A stretch of DNA of 46,388 nt, from positions 1-46,388 of IMG/VR virus record IMGVR_UViG_3300027976_002058; one strand, written 5' to 3'. Positions 3,016-42,519 of the stretch are shown here, piece after piece. The notes below the pieces were generated by a model. The model searched no databases. It saw nothing but the letters and a program-made list of their open reading frames with translations, and was not told the DNA's origin. Position numbers and translations under genes: made by a program. Each line of letters opens with the position of its first letter. Positions within the stretch are counted from its first letter, which is position 1. The stretch is from a virus.

Positions 3016-3249
3016 ATGATTCGACAAGCCAAGTGTATTGGTGTTGAGGGTGATGAAGACGGCGAGTTCAGCGACTTGGTTGGCGCTGAAGGCAAGTTAC
3101 GAATTGATCCCAAGGTTACGGACAGTGCCGTGAATTGGTTCAATGGTGGCGGCTCGGTCAACTTCACTCGGAAGCGTGTGGTTGAGAAGGACGGTATTGT
3201 CAAGGTGTTTACCCTGTTGGGCAATACGTTCAGGTTCAGGTTGGTGTAG
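3016..3249 (+). CDS. Hypothetical protein, 77 aa
   Basis: Strong GCAGGAGG site. Small beta-rich protein (GSVNFTRKRVVEKDGIVKVF) ending TLLGNTFRFRLV. Its last 14 codons begin inside the 14-bp sequence that served as the crossover point of the downstream 273-bp duplication. Family unknown. Confidence 0.65.
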   Translation: MIRQAKCIGVEGDEDGEFSDLVGAEGKLRIDPKVTDSAVNWFNGGGSVNFTRKRVVEKDGIVKVFTLLGNTFRFRLV

Positions 3250-3254
3250 GATTT

Positions 3255-3326
3255 GGCCCATTCGTCTAGTGGCTAGGACGGCTGTTTTTCAGACAGCAGA
3301 AGACGGATCGAAACCGTCATGGGTTA
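3255..3326 (+). tRNA. tRNA-Glu (TTC), copy 1
   Basis: Cloverleaf with acceptor GGCCCAT/ATGGGTT (two G-T pairs), D arm GTCTAGTGGCTAGGAC, anticodon arm GCTGT-TTTTCAG-ACAGC giving anticodon TTC, and T arm GACGG-ATCGAAA-CCGTC. CCA is not encoded, so a CCA-adding enzyme is needed. This is the only fully normal anticodon loop in the window. Confidence 0.88.
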
Positions 3327-3330
3327 TTGT

Positions 3331-3348
3331 TAGTGTCAGTGTACCCTA
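3331..3348 (+). promoter_or_regulatory. 18-bp intergenic element, CAG type
   Basis: Consensus copy a few bases after the tRNA-Glu, first duplication unit. Followed by a leader of about 80 nt with the GGTCGAACC motif. Confidence 0.8.
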
Positions 3349-3374
3349 CGGGGTGTCCGAAAGAAAAAGAGATA

Positions 3375-3406
3375 GGTCGAACCAAATTCGAGGTTCACTC
3401 TCTAGG
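3375..3406 (+). promoter_or_regulatory. GGTCGAACC leader motif, copy 2
   Basis: GGTCGAACCAAAT, eight variable bases, CTCTCTAGG, within the leader of the chimeric reading frame at 3430. Confidence 0.55.
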
Positions 3407-3429
3407 TTGTCACACACAGGAGAAGAAAC

Positions 3430-3522
3430 ATGACTGCGTTCTTGATGATTCAAAACCCCGGCGTTGCTCCCGAAGAAGCATTTACCCTGTTGGGCAATAC
3501 GTTCAGGTTCAGGTTGGTGTAG
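3430..3522 (+). CDS. Chimeric 30-aa reading frame made by the duplication
   Basis: It begins with the first 22 residues of the 527-aa protein (MTAFLMIQNPGVAPEEAFTL...) and switches at TTTACCCTGTTGGG to the last residues of the 77-aa protein (NTFRFRLV). It keeps the full leader and ribosome site, so it is probably translated, but is most likely a by-product. Confidence 0.5.
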   Translation: MTAFLMIQNPGVAPEEAFTLLGNTFRFRLV

Positions 3523-3527
3523 GATTT

Positions 3528-3599
3528 GGCCCATTCGTCTAGTGGCTAGGACGGCTGTTTTTCAGACAGCAGAAGACGGATCGAAACCGTCATGGGTTA
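3528..3599 (+). tRNA. tRNA-Glu (TTC), copy 2
   Basis: Identical to the copy at 3255-3326, shifted by 273 bases. Doubles the dosage of tRNA-Glu(TTC). Confidence 0.88.
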
Positions 3600-3603
3600 T
3601 TGT

Positions 3604-3621
3604 TAGTGTCAGTGTACCCTA
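3604..3621 (+). promoter_or_regulatory. 18-bp intergenic element, CAG type
   Basis: Consensus copy in the second duplication unit; start codon at 3703, giving a long leader. Confidence 0.8.
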
Positions 3622-3647
3622 CGGGGTGTCCGAAAGAAAAAGAGATA

Positions 3648-3679
3648 GGTCGAACCAAATTCGAGGTTCACTCTCTAGG
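3648..3679 (+). promoter_or_regulatory. GGTCGAACC leader motif, copy 3
   Basis: Same as copy 2, in the leader of the 527-aa gene. Confidence 0.55.
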
Positions 3680-3702
3680 TTGTCACACACAGGAGAAGAA
3701 AC

Positions 3703-5286
3703 ATGACTGCGTTCTTGATGATTCAAAACCCCGGCGTTGCTCCCGAAGAAGCATTTACCCTGTTGGGTGCTTCAACGAAGCGAGACAGTGACAATGGTGC
3801 GACGATTGGGAAGTTTGGTACGGGCAACAAGCATGGCGTGGCTGTGTTGCTACGAAATCAGTTGCTTCCGGTGGTGTTCGCCGGGAACTTGAAGTTGGAG
3901 TTTAGGACTCGCCAACAGCCGGTGAATGATGGCATCAAGGATACCGTGTTCAACCGTGTTGTGGTGAAGTTTGGCGGCAAGGACCGGGCGGGGGTATCAC
4001 GTTCGGCGACGGAAGACCTTGGTTTCGTTCTGGAGCATGGTTCGGCAGACTGGCTGTCCGTCGATTTGGCCCTTCGTGAGTTCGTATCCAACTCTCTGGA
4101 CCGGGCTGTCGAGGAAGGGGAAGTCCTGTTCGTCACCAATTACCTTAACGCCCGGTCCTCGGAGTTCAAGCAGGCTGCTGCCAACAAGGGTTCATGGGAA
4201 CACAACGAAGTTCGGGAAGCACTGTCGGTGTACCGTACTACTGCAACTGACTACAAGAACGTGGTCGTTGAAGTTGTGAACGATGGTCAGGTTCGTGCCA
4301 AGGCTGGTCATACTCGCATCTTCATTCCGTTGACTCAGGACGTGTTGGTGTTCTTTAATGATTTGGGGAAGTGGTTCCTTCATTTCAGCGAACCGGAATT
4401 GTTAAACAAGACGATTCTGCCGAAGTCGAATCGCAACATTGGGGATCGTCAGTCGGCGGTGATTTATCGTCGTGGTGTTCGGGTTCGTGAGTTTGAGTCG
4501 TCGGACGTGCCGAGTCTGTTCGACTACAACTTGGAGGATTTGAAGCTGGACGAATCCCGTCGTGTTGACGACTGGTATGTCCAGTACGAAGCTGCTCAGG
4601 CTTTCTCTGGTGGCGAAGTGGAAACTATTGCCCGGTTGTGGCAGTCGTTTCTGGATGGTCAGAAGTTTTGGGAGCATAGCTTCCAGTCGTATGGTTTGGA
4701 AAGTGGTGTCCACAAGCCGCAGGAGAAGGCGAACTGGAATGCTGCATTCGAGCAAGTGGCTGGTCAGTTTGCTGTGATTGCCACTGAGGAAGGAGGTCAG
4801 CAGGCTGCTCGCAAGGGTTTCAAGGTTGTGACGGCACCGCAGGCAATTGTTCAAGCTGCCGAGAAGCATGGGGTTCGGACTCCTGCCAATGTGTTGTCGG
4901 ACGATGAGAAGGCGGGTCGGACGATCTTCGATGCAACGCCAGATGCCACTGCTGCTGTCGAGTTTGCATGGGCGCTGGTGACGAAGTATGGGATCACGAA
5001 CGGCAAGTCGATGCCGGTTGTGAAGACGTTCCGTAAGATCATGGATGCCGGGGGTCAAACCTTGGGGTTCTATAAGGACGGGGTGGTGTATATCAACCAA
5101 GATATTGCAGCGGCAGGTTCGCTGACTCTTGGGTGGCATTCGCTGACTCAGCAATTGCTGGTGACGGCAATTGAGGAAGTTAGTCATCATGTTACCGGGG
5201 CGACGGACAACAGCCGGGACTTCCAAGACTTCACTTTGAACCTAGTGGTTTACATGGCGAAGGAATTGTCGGGCGTCATGTTCTAA
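3703..5286 (+). CDS. GHKL-like ATP-binding protein with a HExxH-like tail
   Basis: 527 aa, the largest product of the left arm, with an AGGAGAAG site. Residues 35-52 (IGKFGTGNKHGVAVLL) look like the glycine-rich ATP lid of GHKL ATPases (Hsp90, MutL, gyrase B), and 126-133 (EFVSNSLD) like the N-box that binds magnesium-ATP. The N-box normally comes first, so the order appears permuted. Near the C-terminus, 490-507 (EEVSHHVTGATDNSRDF) resembles a metallopeptidase-like active site. Role unknown; an ATP-dependent chaperone or counter-defence protein is conceivable. A strong terminator follows. Confidence 0.55.
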   Translation: MTAFLMIQNPGVAPEEAFTLLGASTKRDSDNGATIGKFGTGNKHGVAVLLRNQLLPVVFAGNLKLEFRTRQQPVNDGIKDTVFNRVVVKFGGKDRAGVSRSATEDLGFVLEHGSADWLSVDLALREFVSNSLDRAVEEGEVLFVTNYLNARSSEFKQAAANKGSWEHNEVREALSVYRTTATDYKNVVVEVVNDGQVRAKAGHTRIFIPLTQDVLVFFNDLGKWFLHFSEPELLNKTILPKSNRNIGDRQSAVIYRRGVRVREFESSDVPSLFDYNLEDLKLDESRRVDDWYVQYEAAQAFSGGEVETIARLWQSFLDGQKFWEHSFQSYGLESGVHKPQEKANWNAAFEQVAGQFAVIATEEGGQQAARKGFKVVTAPQAIVQAAEKHGVRTPANVLSDDEKAGRTIFDATPDATAAVEFAWALVTKYGITNGKSMPVVKTFRKIMDAGGQTLGFYKDGVVYINQDIAAAGSLTLGWHSLTQQLLVTAIEEVSHHVTGATDNSRDFQDFTLNLVVYMAKELSGVMF

Positions 5287-9796: not shown

Positions 9797-9821
9797 GGGT
9801 TAGCTGCCCTTGGCGAGACAC

Positions 9822-9875
9822 GGCGGTAGTTTAATTGGTCAGAATGTTGCTCCCAGCAAGGTTCGAGTCCTTCTG
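9822..9875 (+). pseudogene. tRNA-Gly-like remnant
   Basis: GCGGTAGTTTAATTGGTCAG matches the start and D arm of tRNA-Gly genes, TTGC-TCCCA-GCAA could be a collapsed anticodon arm with CCC, and AAGG-TTCGAGT-CCTT is a T arm, but the variable region is gone and the acceptor does not pair. Degenerate tRNA or tRNA-like processing signal. Confidence 0.4.
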
Positions 9876-9910
9876 AGGAAAAGTGGTTGTTATTAGCTAC
9901 AACAATTAAC

Positions 9911-9965
9911 TCCCCTTTGCATGGTGTAACGGGCGACGGTGTGGGTTCGATTCCCATTCGCTGTG
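9911..9965 (+). pseudogene. tRNA-like remnant lacking the anticodon arm
   Basis: CCCCTTTGCATGGTGTAACGG resembles a D-arm side and GTGGG-TTCGATT-CCCAT is a perfect T arm, but only a few bases lie between them, so the anticodon arm is missing. No pairing acceptor found. Confidence 0.4.
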
Positions 9966-9967
9966 TT

Positions 9968-10591: not shown

Positions 10592-10696
10592 GTGGTCGGT
10601 GATGCAGCGGACTCCGCTGGGCAGCTTGCAAGTCAGTGCGGTGAGAAACCGAGAAACGCTGGGCGAATAGCATACCGCAGCATCACTACTGCGAAT
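10592..10696 (+). ncRNA. Candidate structured RNA, about 95 nt
   Basis: No convincing reading frame. GTGATGC (10599-10605) pairs with GCATCAC (10680-10686); inside, AGCGG-ACT-CCGCT is a hairpin and TGCGGT (10637) pairs with ACCGCA (10674), stacking on the outer stem. The 7-bp closing stem and branched fold recall a tRNA-sized cloverleaf, but there is no T-loop signature. Family unknown. Confidence 0.5.
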
Positions 10697-21188: not shown

Positions 21189-21404
21189 CAGCGTAACGCC
21201 TCCCAAACATCGGCCTTGGCAAGCCTCAGTCTTCAACATAAGGAGAGAAAAACCAATGGGCCACTAAAATCCGCTAACTCCCCGGCGTAGTCATCCACGT
21301 TAGAGCGGGGCAGGATCAGCAAAGTGATGGCCTCACGTCAGCAATGGGCAGCATCGTGCTGACTGACGTGTGAAATGAAAGCGGGTTAACAACCAGCAAG
21401 ACGG
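21189..21404 (+). ncRNA. Candidate structured RNA with a minigene
   Basis: No gene except ATG GGC CAC TAA (21256-21267, Met-Gly-His) behind AGGAGAGAAAAACC, the same string as at 19858. Downstream, CACGTCAGCA and TGCTGACTGACGTG (about 21336-21370) form a long bulged hairpin. With its own element and terminator this is probably a separate RNA. Confidence 0.45.
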
Positions 21405-21430
21405 GGCAGGCCCAACCTGCCTTTTTTTTG
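21405..21430 (+). terminator. Rho-independent terminator
   Basis: GGCAGG-CCCAA-CCTGCC followed by eight T. Confidence 0.88.
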
Positions 21431-21442
21431 TTTTTATTTGCG

Positions 21443-21460
21443 TAGTGTAATTGTACCCTA
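21443..21460 (+). promoter_or_regulatory. 18-bp intergenic element, AAT type after a terminator
   Basis: TAGTGTAATTGTACCCTA, upstream of the tRNA-like gene at 21485. Confidence 0.85.
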
Positions 21461-21484: not shown

Positions 21485-21621
21485 GGGAGCGTAGCTCAAC
21501 TGGCTAGAGCATTCATCAATATTGTAGCGATTGATCGGGGTTCCACGGTCAATGCGGTCAACGTGTGTACAGCGTTGGTTTAAGAAGATGAAGAGATGGG
21601 GGTTCGATGCCCTCCGCACCC
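21485..21621 (+). tRNA. tRNA-like gene with a ~69-nt insert in the anticodon arm
   Basis: Acceptor GGGAGCG/CGCACCC (one A-A mismatch), perfect D arm GCTC-AACTGGCTA-GAGC, and T arm GGGGG-TTCGATG-CCCTC are all present. The anticodon stem TTCATC (21512) finds its partner GATGAA only at 21587, with 69 nt between instead of about 5. The insert folds into ATCAAT/ATTGAT and CAACG/CGTTG hairpins. It is too short for a group I intron. It could be an intron needing dedicated splicing, or a non-decoding tRNA-like RNA. Confidence 0.55.
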
Positions 21622-21703
21622 TGCTTACACTGTAGGCAATAAAATGCCGAACAACGAGGCGTCAGAACACGCCTACAACCCCGCAAGGGGAGAGAGTGTA
21701 AGG

Positions 21704-21721
21704 TAGTGTCAGTGTACCCTA
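21704..21721 (+). promoter_or_regulatory. 18-bp intergenic element, CAG type
   Basis: Consensus; the start at 21734 follows after 12 bases and uses GAGGG from the element flank. Confidence 0.8.
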
Positions 21722-21733
21722 GAGGGTGTAACG

Positions 21734-22153
21734 ATGAGATGGAAAACACAAGACCAATACTTGGAGACAAGAGCCGTGTACGATTTTGACATTGGCGATC
21801 AACGCAACACCCGGTCAATGGACATGCGGCCCGAATCACCTGCGGAATATTCCCAATTGGACGAACTGCAAGACGGCAAGGCAATGACGTTGCTGCCAGT
21901 CTTCAGCGGTGAAGCCTTCCAGAAAGCCGTGGTTTTCCCGGTCATCGTCGAAGCATGGGACAAGAAATCGGCAGGAAAACACAAACGACGCTGGGAAGCC
22001 ACGTTTACCCCTGCTGAACGCAAGAAGATTGCCATCTATTACGGGCGGTTTTACAAGTGGTATTTGGTCAGCGGTGTGCCAAGGAAAGTCAGCGTGAGAC
22101 TCAACACCCTGACGCTGTTGCAAAAGGCAGTCAACTTCTTCGCCGAATGTTAG
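21734..22153 (+). CDS. Hypothetical protein, 139 aa
   Basis: MRWKTQDQYLETRAVYDFDI...; basic aromatic C-terminal half (KKSAGKHKRRWEATFTPAER). Almost leaderless. Function unknown. Confidence 0.6.
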   Translation: MRWKTQDQYLETRAVYDFDIGDQRNTRSMDMRPESPAEYSQLDELQDGKAMTLLPVFSGEAFQKAVVFPVIVEAWDKKSAGKHKRRWEATFTPAERKKIAIYYGRFYKWYLVSGVPRKVSVRLNTLTLLQKAVNFFAEC

Positions 22154-25685: not shown

Positions 25686-25691
25686 ATGGAT

Positions 25692-25763
25692 ACCATCAGT
25701 GGTGTAATGGTAGCACTCACCGATTCAGTTCGGTGTGGTTCCTGTTCAACTCAGGACGATGGC
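25692..25763 (+). tRNA. tRNA-like gene with a 6- or 8-nt anticodon loop
   Basis: D arm GGTG-TAATGGTAG-CACT, T arm TCCTG-TTCAACT-CAGGA and a five-pair acceptor (CCATC/GATGG) are clear. The anticodon arm folds as ACCGA-TTCAGT-TCGGT (6-nt loop) or CACCG-ATTCAGTT-CGGTG (8-nt), never 7. Possible anticodons CAG or TCA cannot be decided. No CCA encoded. Confidence 0.6.
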
Positions 25764-25769
25764 AATGCT

Positions 25770-34323: not shown

Positions 34324-34710
34324 TTACTTGACGACTTGGACAACTCCACGAAGCACTAACGGTTGAACCAATGGCGTCCAGTTGGTCAATTCATTACTAT
34401 GCTGCGATTTACCCCCGCCGTTCACATTGACGGCCACGGTGATATGTTTGATCTTATTGTTGCTAGGGACTGAAGATTCAACCGCTACAGCAATCACACG
34501 ATTGTCTTCGGCGAAGTTTTTCGCTACAACTTCAAATTGCTGACCCACAAGGTCAGCGGCAGGTCCACTCTCGGCGGGTCCGAGGTTAATGGTCATGTGA
34601 TGACAAATTATCTTCCAATCCAAAGGAACGACTGGATGAAACAGAAACAACTTCAATAGTTGTGCGTGAGAATCTTCATCGAGAACTAAGGCGGTGTATA
34701 CAAACGCCAT
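34324..34710 (-). CDS. 2H phosphoesterase (RNA end repair or cyclic-nucleotide cleavage)
   Basis: 128 aa with two H-x-T motifs, HHMTINLG (37-44) and KHITVAVN (88-95), about 50 residues apart, the signature of the 2H superfamily (LigT, CPDase, AKAP18, tRNA ligase CPD domain, anti-CBASS Acb1). These enzymes open 2',3'-cyclic phosphates on RNA ends or hydrolyse cyclic nucleotides. The ending NVNGGGKSQHSNELTNWTPL resembles the CPD-type branch linked to RNA ligases. Its ATG overlaps the stop of the zinc-ribbon gene (TAATG). Confidence 0.75.
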   Translation of the reverse strand: MAFVYTALVLDEDSHAQLLKLFLFHPVVPLDWKIICHHMTINLGPAESGPAADLVGQQFEVVAKNFAEDNRVIAVAVESSVPSNNKIKHITVAVNVNGGGKSQHSNELTNWTPLVQPLVLRGVVQVVK

Positions 34711-40236: not shown

Positions 40237-40836
40237 TTAAATGTCGTGTTTCTCACCCGTTAGGACATCGTGAATAACGATTCTCTCCAAATGAGTGAAT
40301 TTAGCCTTCCACTGCTTCGCCAAAGTGAAAAATGCACTGGTATGTTCTGGACGGTCTTCCCAAATCTCCAACACCGTAAGTCCTTGGTGCATAAGGTCTT
40401 CGGAGATAAAGTTCGACTTAATCTCCAGCGTATCCCGACCTTTTTGTCCGGGCTGACCCCTGAAATAGTGACTATGGAAAATCAGGTCGAAATGTTCACA
40501 GATTGCAATAACCCGTTTGCGATTCTTGAACGGACGACCCGTCATCAAGACGAGTTCGGCGTCTTCGTCTTTGGCATCTTCTCGATATGCGGCGATGGTA
40601 TCAGCAATCAGCCACTCTTCTCCTGGCTTTTCCGGGACAATAGGTGGCGATAGTGATTCCAACCGACCCCACCAGCCAAGGAACGGGAGCGTATTCCCGG
40701 TTGCTTCCAGGTACGCAAGTTCTCCAGCTTCCCGGTCGGGAGAGTTGAATAGGGTTCCATCGAAGTCGTATATCACCAACCGCTTTTTACGGTTGCGGGG
40801 CTTCGGGAGCCATTTTTCGAGGGTTTGTTTGCTCAT
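40237..40836 (-). CDS. Swiss-army-knife-type HAD protein (RNA repair-like)
   Basis: 199 aa. IYDFDGTLFNSP (22-33) holds the two catalytic Asp of HAD phosphatases, ELVLMTGRPFKNR (94-106) motif II, and LEIWEDRPEHTSAFF (156-170) the acidic motif IV. This W.EDR.EH ending is the HAD_SAK pattern found in Swiss Army Knife RNA repair proteins, which combine phosphatase with kinase/ligase-type activities. It likely removes phosphate from RNA ends. Lies next to a nucleotidyltransferase and near a 2H phosphoesterase. Confidence 0.75.
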   Translation of the reverse strand: MSKQTLEKWLPKPRNRKKRLVIYDFDGTLFNSPDREAGELAYLEATGNTLPFLGWWGRLESLSPPIVPEKPGEEWLIADTIAAYREDAKDEDAELVLMTGRPFKNRKRVIAICEHFDLIFHSHYFRGQPGQKGRDTLEIKSNFISEDLMHQGLTVLEIWEDRPEHTSAFFTLAKQWKAKFTHLERIVIHDVLTGEKHDI

Positions 40837-40902: not shown

Positions 40903-42519
40903 TTATTCATCGTCACCTTCAGTTGGACCTGCTGGACCTGCTGGTCCTTGGGCGACGGGCTTACCACCGCCAGACTTGAGTTTATTTAGACTGTCTTTCC
41001 AACGCTGAGTTGAAAGGTTCCGTTTGACAGAATCAAATTCACTGCCTTGAGGCGCACGTCCTAAGAACTTAATGTATTCTGGGTTTACAGTTTTTTTACC
41101 ATTGGCACCCTGCGAATATGGCGTTAGGTCTTTATCATCATGATTCAGGAAGTTATCGACTTCTGGCCCGCTGGCCTTGGCCATTTGCATCCATTCTCGA
41201 ATTTTGCTCTTGGTTAAACCTGTGTGAGCGGACTTCATGTCGTAGAAGTCTTTAGGGTCAAACTTATTCTTGGCTCCCCACTGATATAGTTTAACCAAAT
41301 AAGCAATATCCCCAGACTCTTGTTTGGACCAGCCGCCCCCTGACAGCATTTGTTTGATTTCTTCAGGATCGTTCTTACGAAGAACCCAAGCGGGGGCCAA
41401 CCAACGGTCGCCACGGAAATCTTCTGGCATTTCTTCTGGATCGAATTCAACACCTGGGAACACGCTGTTTAACAAGCCGGTATTCTGGAATGCCTTCATG
41501 TATTTACGAGGATCACTATCTGGGTGTTCCAGACCGCTAAGGAATTCCTTACGAACTGTGTCCTTGTCAACCCCAGCCATGTCTTTATGACGAGAAATGG
41601 ACTGTTGATCTTTATCGGTAATTTTGTCTGAGTTGCCGTATCGAGTGACCATCTTCATGTATCTCAAAGCCGTAGATGGGTCTTCGGACATACGAGCTTC
41701 AAGATTATCACCGACAGATTTAACTTCGCCATTCTTCAGGTGGTGAGCGCCACCATGAGGGTCGATTAGATCACTATTGTCACCGTCCGCAGTCGTCAGC
41801 GGGATGTATAGAGAGTTAATCGTAAAGTCACGATTGGCCGAATCTTCTTCAACTGAGGCGGCTGATTCGCCCTTATCAGGCTGAACTCGACGACTCTTAG
41901 AAGACTTGGAAAGAGTGGCAATAGAGAATTGTTCGCCGTTGATTTCAGCGGTCACTTCCAATTCTTTACCTTGCTTGTCCCAACGAGAGGCATGGAAAAT
42001 CTTGTTTTTAGTGCCTGGGGCTGGGAGTTTAGCATAGCGTTCGTCACTGGCGTAATCGCCTTCACGGGGCTTAGTTTCCGTAAATTGCGTCTCTGGCTGG
42101 GTCAGAATCATACGCATTTCACTTGGCGTAGCATCTGTAACCAGATCGTAATTTCTTGGAGTTTTGCCTTTTAGGTGGTCACGAACGGCACCGCCAGTGA
42201 GATACAACACCTTCTTTTTAAGATTTGGCTCAACTTCACCTTTAGATTTATCAATGGTTGTATACCCTACTCCGACGTTCTGGGAGTCGGCAAAAGCCTT
42301 AATGAGCACTCTAAGGTTAGGGTGTGTGGTTTTATTGATTGTGAAAGGAGCGAATTCCTTGGAACCCTCTTTCTTCTGCAATTTAATGCGAGAAGTGATG
42401 TTTCCTGACCCTGGAAGACCAGAGCCGGTATTACCACCTCCACCGCTGGCTTCGCCTTCACTTGGCTTGGCTCCGGTTTCTTCTCTTAACTGAAAGTAAT
42501 TTGCGAACAACTTTTTCAT
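40903..42519 (-). CDS. CCA-adding enzyme/poly(A) polymerase-like nucleotidyltransferase
   Basis: 538 aa. LTGGAVRDHLKGKTPRNYDL (107-126) is the class II nucleotidyltransferase head; NRDFTINSLYIPL (229-241) and EARMSEDPSTALRYMKM follow as in CCA enzymes and PcnB. It would mature the window's tRNAs, which lack CCA, or tail RNA. The first Asp of the DxD pair is Asn here (NYD, 123-125), which could weaken catalysis. A Gly/Ser-rich N-terminal extension (15-45) and C-terminal Gly/Pro tail are unusual. Confidence 0.82.
   Translation of the reverse strand: MKKLFANYFQLREETGAKPSEGEASGGGGNTGSGLPGSGNITSRIKLQKKEGSKEFAPFTINKTTHPNLRVLIKAFADSQNVGVGYTTIDKSKGEVEPNLKKKVLYLTGGAVRDHLKGKTPRNYDLVTDATPSEMRMILTQPETQFTETKPREGDYASDERYAKLPAPGTKNKIFHASRWDKQGKELEVTAEINGEQFSIATLSKSSKSRRVQPDKGESAASVEEDSANRDFTINSLYIPLTTADGDNSDLIDPHGGAHHLKNGEVKSVGDNLEARMSEDPSTALRYMKMVTRYGNSDKITDKDQQSISRHKDMAGVDKDTVRKEFLSGLEHPDSDPRKYMKAFQNTGLLNSVFPGVEFDPEEMPEDFRGDRWLAPAWVLRKNDPEEIKQMLSGGGWSKQESGDIAYLVKLYQWGAKNKFDPKDFYDMKSAHTGLTKSKIREWMQMAKASGPEVDNFLNHDDKDLTPYSQGANGKKTVNPEYIKFLGRAPQGSEFDSVKRNLSTQRWKDSLNKLKSGGGKPVAQGPAGPAGPTEGDDE

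What the first reader, a model, noticed from the sequence alone, without database searches (positions are those of the whole stretch)
21485..21621. tRNA-like gene interrupted by a 69-nt structured insert
Acceptor, D arm and T arm are nearly perfect, and the anticodon stem halves TTCATC and GATGAA are separated by 69 nt with two internal hairpins. No known bacterial or phage intron class is that small; splicing would need an endonuclease plus end repair, for which the right arm encodes candidates.
Basis: partly seen in the sequence, partly recalled or inferred. Interest (0 to 1): 0.65.

Follow-up and report, generated by a model that had tools for sequence, protein, structure and literature searches.

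The report
Conserved phage tRNA-like RNA with insert
A huge-phage genome carries a conserved RNA gene that looks like a transfer RNA whose anticodon loop holds a 69-letter folded insert; relatives carry a whole set of such interrupted or rearranged tRNA genes, so it is a real RNA of an undescribed sort, but whether the insert is cut out or kept is unknown.

Summary
Window 21485-21621 holds a tRNA chassis (acceptor 6/7, D 4/4, anticodon stem 6/6, T 5/5 pairs) with 69 nt (21518-21586) in the anticodon loop; it scores 52, against a best of 39 in 500 dinucleotide shuffles on both strands. It is conserved in two related contigs (effectively one further lineage), with compensatory changes in the acceptor and anticodon stems. 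The insert differs at 6/69 sites, while 4-fold sites of flanking genes differ at 28-61%, so it is under selection. A second conserved folded domain (21624-21702) follows directly. The window has a second such gene (9819-9966). Relative G003 (340 kb) has about nine, some with no anticodon loop at all.

The spliced-intron reading is neither shown nor excluded. For it: one excision register restores a 7-nt U33/R37 loop in both lineages; several relatives behave likewise; relative LR756511 has a circularly permuted tRNA-Lys gene; end-repair enzymes are encoded. Against it: no EndA or RtcB in any relative; Leu-type anticodon on a short-variable-arm, U73 body; a very conserved insert; anticodon-less sisters. 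My best guess, held weakly, is a kept-in structured tRNA mimic (0.45), then a new small-intron type (0.33). No RNA evidence exists.

The parts
21443..21460 (+). TAGTGTAATTGTACCCTA, the 'AAT' form of an 18-bp element repeated 62 times; probable promoter of this unit
   Evidence: all 8 exact AAT copies follow a T5 run, against 1 of 38 CAG copies
21485..21491 (+). acceptor stem 5' strand GGGAGCG
   Evidence: one compensatory pair change against relatives
21494..21510 (+). D arm GCTC-AACTGGCTA-GAGC
   Evidence: invariant in three contigs
21512..21517 (+). anticodon stem 5' strand TTCATC
21518..21586 (+). 69-nt insert with two predicted hairpins (21527-21555, 21558-21578)
   Evidence: 6/69 differences from G002/G003
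21587..21592 (+). anticodon stem 3' strand GATGAA
   Evidence: U-A to C-G change with partner
21598..21614 (+). T arm GGGGG-TTCGATG-CCCTC
   Evidence: invariant in three contigs
21615..21622 (+). acceptor 3' strand CGCACCC and discriminator T73; no encoded CCA
21624..21702 (+). second folded domain, a 4-way junction closed by CTTACACT/AGTGTAAG with three hairpins, one GNRA-capped
   Evidence: z -5.25, 0 of 300 shuffles as stable; one compensatory pair
21704..21721 (+). TAGTGTCAGTGTACCCTA, the intercistronic 'CAG' form of the element
9819..9966 (+). second interrupted tRNA-like gene of the window (about 75-80 nt insert); homolog in G003 at 275356
   Evidence: Rfam 36.6 bits; ARAGORN intron mode; alignment A3
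34324..34710 (-). small protein with two HxT motifs (2H phosphoesterase-like); possible RNA end repair
   Evidence: Pfam hit is below cut-off
40237..40836 (-). HAD phosphatase of the Swiss-Army-Knife RNA-repair type
   Evidence: PF10307 3.2e-9
40903..42519 (-). tRNA nucleotidyltransferase (CCA-adding)
   Evidence: PF01743 1e-20; PHROG 2244

Best explanation
The locus encodes a tRNA-derived noncoding RNA of a huge phage. A complete tRNA chassis (acceptor, D and T arms) carries an anticodon arm lengthened by a conserved two-hairpin module, followed by a second conserved folded domain. It starts at its own promoter-like element (inferred). The RNA is probably processed and perhaps CCA-tailed like a tRNA, and keeps its insert (inferred). 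With its decoding loop blocked it cannot work on the ribosome, but it could still engage proteins that read the acceptor/T half (EF-Tu, CCA enzyme, a synthetase) or tRNA-attacking host defences, as a mimic or a nuclease-proof decoy (inferred, untested). Shown: the predicted structure, its conservation, compensatory changes, and the existence of sister genes. Not shown: expression, fate of the insert, binding partner.
For: Beyond chance. Conserved in G002 and G003, with 3 compensatory pairs and 98% of cells paired, against 39-50% in slid controls. The insert differs at 6/69 sites while 4-fold sites of four neighbouring genes differ at 28-61% (binomial 2e-5 at 30%). The adjoining 3' domain is conserved and strongly folded. 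G003 has a five-gene run of tRNA-likes, four of which have a GNRA-capped stem where the anticodon arm should be, plus long inserts, so tRNA-likes that cannot decode as encoded exist in this clade. The module of G003:106134 recurs near-identically in a paralog with different acceptor and T arms. U73 and a 5-6-nt variable region fit no Leu tRNA. Literature lead: phage tRNAs are thought to be selected to escape anticodon nucleases (PMC10264068).
Against: No transcript evidence and no identified partner. The anticodon stem is kept, and one excision register restores a canonical loop in both lineages, which a pure mimic would not need. Related LR756511 has tRNA genes that seem to require RNA joining. 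Only two independent lineages are available, so the covariation is thin. Sister genes are gained and lost between relatives, as dispensable elements would be.
Confidence: 0.45

Rival explanations
1. The insert is a small intron of an undescribed type, sitting at the 5' side of the anticodon loop (31/32 or 32/33). It is cut out by an unknown nuclease or by the RNA itself and the ends are joined by phage repair enzymes, giving a tRNA with loop TTAAGAA (anticodon AAG; GAG in relatives).
For: The only registers giving a 7-nt U33/R37 loop in both lineages agree and differ only at the wobble base of the anticodon. The same kind of register exists for G003:70325 (CTACTAA, read), LR756511 L131:339-430 (CTCATAA) and G009 L172:5509 (GTGAAGT). 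G009 and LR756511 have tRNAs with intact anticodon arms but inserts elsewhere. LR756511 has a circularly permuted tRNA-Lys (score 50, null maximum 29), which needs RNA joining to work. HAD_SAK, 2H-like and RNA ligase genes are present. G003 lacks intact Leu, Ser, Phe, Tyr and Cys tRNAs.
Against: No PF01974 or RtcB; no Rfam intron match; no bulge-helix-bulge found by hand at the junctions; U73 and a short variable arm do not fit the restored anticodon; the insert is at least as conserved as the tRNA arms; other sister genes lack any recoverable anticodon.
Confidence: 0.33
2. The tRNA-like plus 3' domain is a cis-acting leader that controls the next gene (21734-22153) or marks a processing point in the transcript.
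For: It lies directly upstream of that gene in all three contigs, with an intercistronic CAG element between in the window.
Against: The downstream protein diverges (69-74% aa) while the RNA stays at 88% DNA identity; tRNA-like chassis recur at unrelated places.
Confidence: 0.12
3. A decaying tRNA gene with a chance insertion.
For: One acceptor mismatch; tRNA-likes are lost in relatives, e.g. the 5' half of G003:80006 is missing in G009.
Against: Compensatory acceptor and anticodon-stem changes, and an insert far more conserved than 4-fold sites.
Confidence: 0.07

Closest known systems
Phage-encoded tRNAs altered to escape anticodon nucleases (van den Berg et al. 2023, PMC10264068)
   Same: tRNA genes in phages whose anticodon loop has changed, proposed to resist tRNA-cleaving defence
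   Different: Those have base changes in a 7-nt loop and still decode; here the loop is replaced or interrupted by a 69-nt folded module
Archaeal and eukaryotic tRNA introns (EndA/Sen-type endonuclease)
   Same: Small insert in the anticodon loop of a tRNA chassis
   Different: Insertion point appears to be 5' of the anticodon rather than 37/38; no bulge-helix-bulge seen; no EndA or RtcB gene in the phages
Bacterial group I introns in tRNA anticodon loops
   Same: Interrupt the anticodon loop
   Different: Known ones are about 200 nt or more with a P3-P7 core (own knowledge); no Rfam match here. A 2014 review says all phage introns known then were in protein genes (PMC3984707)
tmRNA
   Same: tRNA-like ends with a long insert in place of the anticodon arm
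   Different: Full D stem here, no G3.U70, ARAGORN and Rfam find no tmRNA in the window; the open frame across the insert shows no protein-level constraint
Circularly permuted tRNA genes of red algae and archaea
   Same: The permuted tRNA-Lys of related phage LR756511 has the same half-order
   Different: That gene is not in this window, and is flanked by an undescribed paired motif rather than a bulge-helix-bulge

Membership tests
tRNA (Rfam RF00005) | acceptor, D, T arms with U8, GG in D loop, TTCRANY-type T loop | tested here: met
tRNA (Rfam RF00005) | 7-nt anticodon loop with U33 | tested here: not met
   loop is 69-71 nt as encoded
tRNA (Rfam RF00005) | covariance-model score above gathering cut-off | tested here: not met
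   21485 is not listed even at E<=10; the sister 9820 is (36.6 bits)
Archaeal/eukaryotic tRNA intron | bulge-helix-bulge at the junctions | tested here: inconclusive
   none found by hand-reading the sequence; no dedicated search
Archaeal/eukaryotic tRNA intron | tRNA-splicing endonuclease and RtcB-type ligase available | tested here: not met
   PF01974 and PF01139 absent from the window and 9 related records, several of them fragments; host unknown
Group I intron | conserved P3-P7 catalytic core | tested here: not met
   no Rfam hit at E<=10; only 69 nt
tmRNA | D-stem-less tRNA domain with G3.U70 and tag frame | tested here: not met
   D stem 4/4, pair 3-70 is G-C or C-G; no tmRNA match in the window; coding changes mostly non-synonymous
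Spliced tRNA gene | joined RNA product | not testable with these tools
   needs RNA from infected cells

The most novel reading that the evidence does not exclude
Huge phages of this clade carry a new kind of small structured tRNA intron (17 to about 80 nt, often at the 5' side of the anticodon loop, elsewhere in the D arm), removed by a phage- or RNA-encoded cut-and-join process that also matures a circularly permuted phage tRNA.
Probability: 0.3. Interest if true: 0.9.

Novelty: new variant of a known kind. Interest (0 to 1): 0.62.

Why it matters
Either reading is informative. If the insert is kept, phages make structured tRNA mimics that cannot decode, which would point to an unrecognised role in takeover or counter-defence. 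If it is removed, phages have a small tRNA splicing system with no known counterpart in bacteria. Standard tRNA annotation misses these genes: default ARAGORN did not report the two in this window, so they may be widespread and unseen.

Tried and rejected
tmRNA reading: rejected (full D stem, no G3.U70, no match in the window). Small protein: frame 0 gives a 40-codon frame from ATG 21461 to TAA, but changes between lineages are mostly non-synonymous, fit the RNA pairing, and the start codon is lost in G003. Archaeal BHB intron: none seen; EndA and RtcB absent. Window insert as the same module as G003:106134/80006: only a loose AGC-RA/UGC and hairpin similarity, not claimed. Window insert as the LR756511 TACAAAC motif: absent. 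Exact DNA patterns for the 18-bp element and the LR756511 motif found nothing in viral contigs; the insert pattern found nothing in bacterial/archaeal genomes. Plasmid collection: no match. I first took the GNRA stems of the G003 cluster for variable arms; rejected because, in the clearest members, D stem, GNRA arm, 5-nt variable region and T arm follow in type I order.

Full report
What is there. The window is a 46-kb viral contig. Its closest relatives are fragments or drafts of huge phages of 340-381 kb, and the 595-kb LR756511 is a distant relative. A custom split-tRNA scan (acceptor, U8, D arm, anticodon stem, T arm) scores it 52; 500 dinucleotide shuffles of the window, both strands, reach at most 39. 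ARAGORN with introns allowed reports it and a second one at 9819-9966. Default ARAGORN reports neither, and Rfam reports only the second.

Transcription context. An 18-bp element occurs 62 times in the window against 0.01 expected. The AAT form follows a T5 run in 8 of 8 exact copies, the CAG form in 1 of 38. The AAT form is therefore probably a promoter after a terminator, and the CAG form intercistronic. The tRNA-like unit starts with an AAT copy (21443) and ends at a CAG copy (21704), giving a unit of about 243 nt. Its 3' third (21624-21702) folds into a four-way junction more stably than all 300 shuffles (z -5.25).

Conservation. Two contigs, G002 and G003, hold the whole unit at 88% identity. 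They differ from each other at 3 of 243 columns, so they count as one further lineage. Three pairs change on both sides: acceptor 3-70 (G-C to C-G), anticodon stem (U-A to C-G) and a hairpin of the 3' domain. Slid controls give 0 or 1 such pairs and 39-50% paired cells, against 98%. This is modest evidence because there are only two lineages. Differences from G003: insert 6/69, 5' core 4/33, 3' core 7/35, 3' domain 9/82 with its gap columns counted. Four-fold sites of four neighbouring genes differ by 28%, 32%, 33% and 61%. The insert is thus under constraint.

Sister genes. G003 has about 52 ordinary tRNAs by ARAGORN, none for Leu, Ser, Phe, Tyr or Cys. It also has interrupted tRNA-likes at 70325, 70493, 70622, 70804, 70916, about 80000, 101019, 106134, 275356 (homolog of window 9820) and 287491 (homolog of window 21485). 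Four members of the 70-71 kb run have a GCAA or GTAA tetraloop on a short stem where the anticodon arm should be, with the insert in the D-loop region in at least two; as encoded they cannot decode. The G003:106134 module recurs in its neighbour at about 80000 (82% over 77 nt), while acceptor and T arms differ, and in contig G009 with a perfect acceptor. In G009 the 5' half of the 80000 gene is missing, so these genes turn over.

Is it spliced? Enumerating excisions that leave a 7-nt loop, only registers 0 and 1 give U33 and R37 in the window lineage, and they also work in G003: TTAAGAA/ATAAGAA and TTGAGAG/ATGAGAG. Similar registers give CTACTAA at G003:70325 (read) and CTCATAA in an LR756511 gene. 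This suggests the modules were inserted beside, not inside, the anticodon. It does not show that they are removed. The Leu-type anticodon on a U73 body with a 5-6-nt variable region is odd for a working tRNA (established knowledge of tRNA-Leu). No EndA-type endonuclease or RtcB was found. An RNA ligase family occurs in G003, G006, G007, G008 and LR756511, a HAD_SAK phosphatase in the window, G001-G003, G008 and LR756511, and a 2H-like protein in the window. These fit tRNA repair after host attack as well as splicing. Al-Shayeb et al. 2020 mention phage genes for ligating cleaved tRNAs, and do not mention introns in the main text (PMC7162821).

LR756511. On the minus strand around 288.0-291.6 kb it has 13-15 copies of an undescribed motif: ACTTGGAC-type 5' half, GTCCCC-type 3' half ending in TACAAAC, with P1 and b/b' helices that covary between copies. 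Some copies sit inside tRNA genes (Lys, Trp, Arg, Met by their intact anticodon arms). Others enclose tRNAs in permuted order. One encloses a circularly permuted tRNA-Lys(TTT): T arm and acceptor 3' strand first, then a GCAA linker, then acceptor 5' strand, D arm and anticodon arm (score 50; one hit of at most 29 in 300 shuffles). No Rfam family matched this region except tRNA. This is the strongest hint that RNA joining occurs in this wider group, but it is a distant relative and its motif is not in the window.

Commitment. I put 0.45 on a kept-in structured tRNA mimic, 0.33 on a new small-intron type, 0.12 on a cis-acting leader, 0.07 on decay. The existence and conservation of the gene are well supported; the mechanism is inference. 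The nearest published idea is that phage tRNAs are shaped to escape anticodon nucleases (PMC10264068), which would fit a loop that has been rebuilt, but nothing here tests it.

Noticed in passing
LR756511.1 290734-290804 minus (L134:10734-10804): A circularly permuted tRNA-Lys(TTT) gene in a phage: 3' half (T arm + acceptor 3') upstream of the 5' half, joined by GCAA; score 50 against a shuffle maximum of 29.
   Followed up: partly
LR756511.1 about 288.0-291.6 kb minus (L134:7990-11440): 13-15 copies of an undescribed pseudoknot-like RNA motif (ACTTGGAC...GTCCCC...a'b'TACAAAC), inside tRNA genes or enclosing them in permuted order, with covarying helices and no Rfam match.
   Followed up: partly
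G003:C1:70325-71046 (L056:1326-2047): Five consecutive tRNA-like genes with 7-bp acceptors and T arms but inserts in D or anticodon arms; four have GNRA tetraloops instead of anticodon loops.
   Followed up: partly
window 25691-25765: tRNA-like gene with an 8-nt anticodon loop ATTCAGTT, which ARAGORN reads as a four-base anticodon tcag.
   Followed up: no
window 3208-3753: Perfect 273-nt tandem duplication carrying two identical tRNA-Glu(TTC) genes.
   Followed up: no
window 1524-27389 (62 sites): 18-bp element TAGTGTnAnTGTACCCTA between nearly all left-arm genes; its TAG closes a frame of 60 or more codons in at least 25 cases. The AAT form follows terminator-like T runs.
   Followed up: partly
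window 10592-10696 and 21189-21442: Two further probable structured noncoding units between elements; the second is 82% identical in G002/G003 and ends in a terminator-like T run.
   Followed up: no
G003 and LR756511: tRNAs with CTA anticodon (amber-reading; two in G003, one in LR756511) while many window genes appear to end in TAG.
   Followed up: no
G009 L172:6889-6985: tRNA-Ile(GAT)-like gene with intact anticodon arm GAAGC-CTGATTA-GCTTC and an insert of about 27 nt between D and anticodon arms; the G003 locus has a different tRNA 5' half.
   Followed up: no
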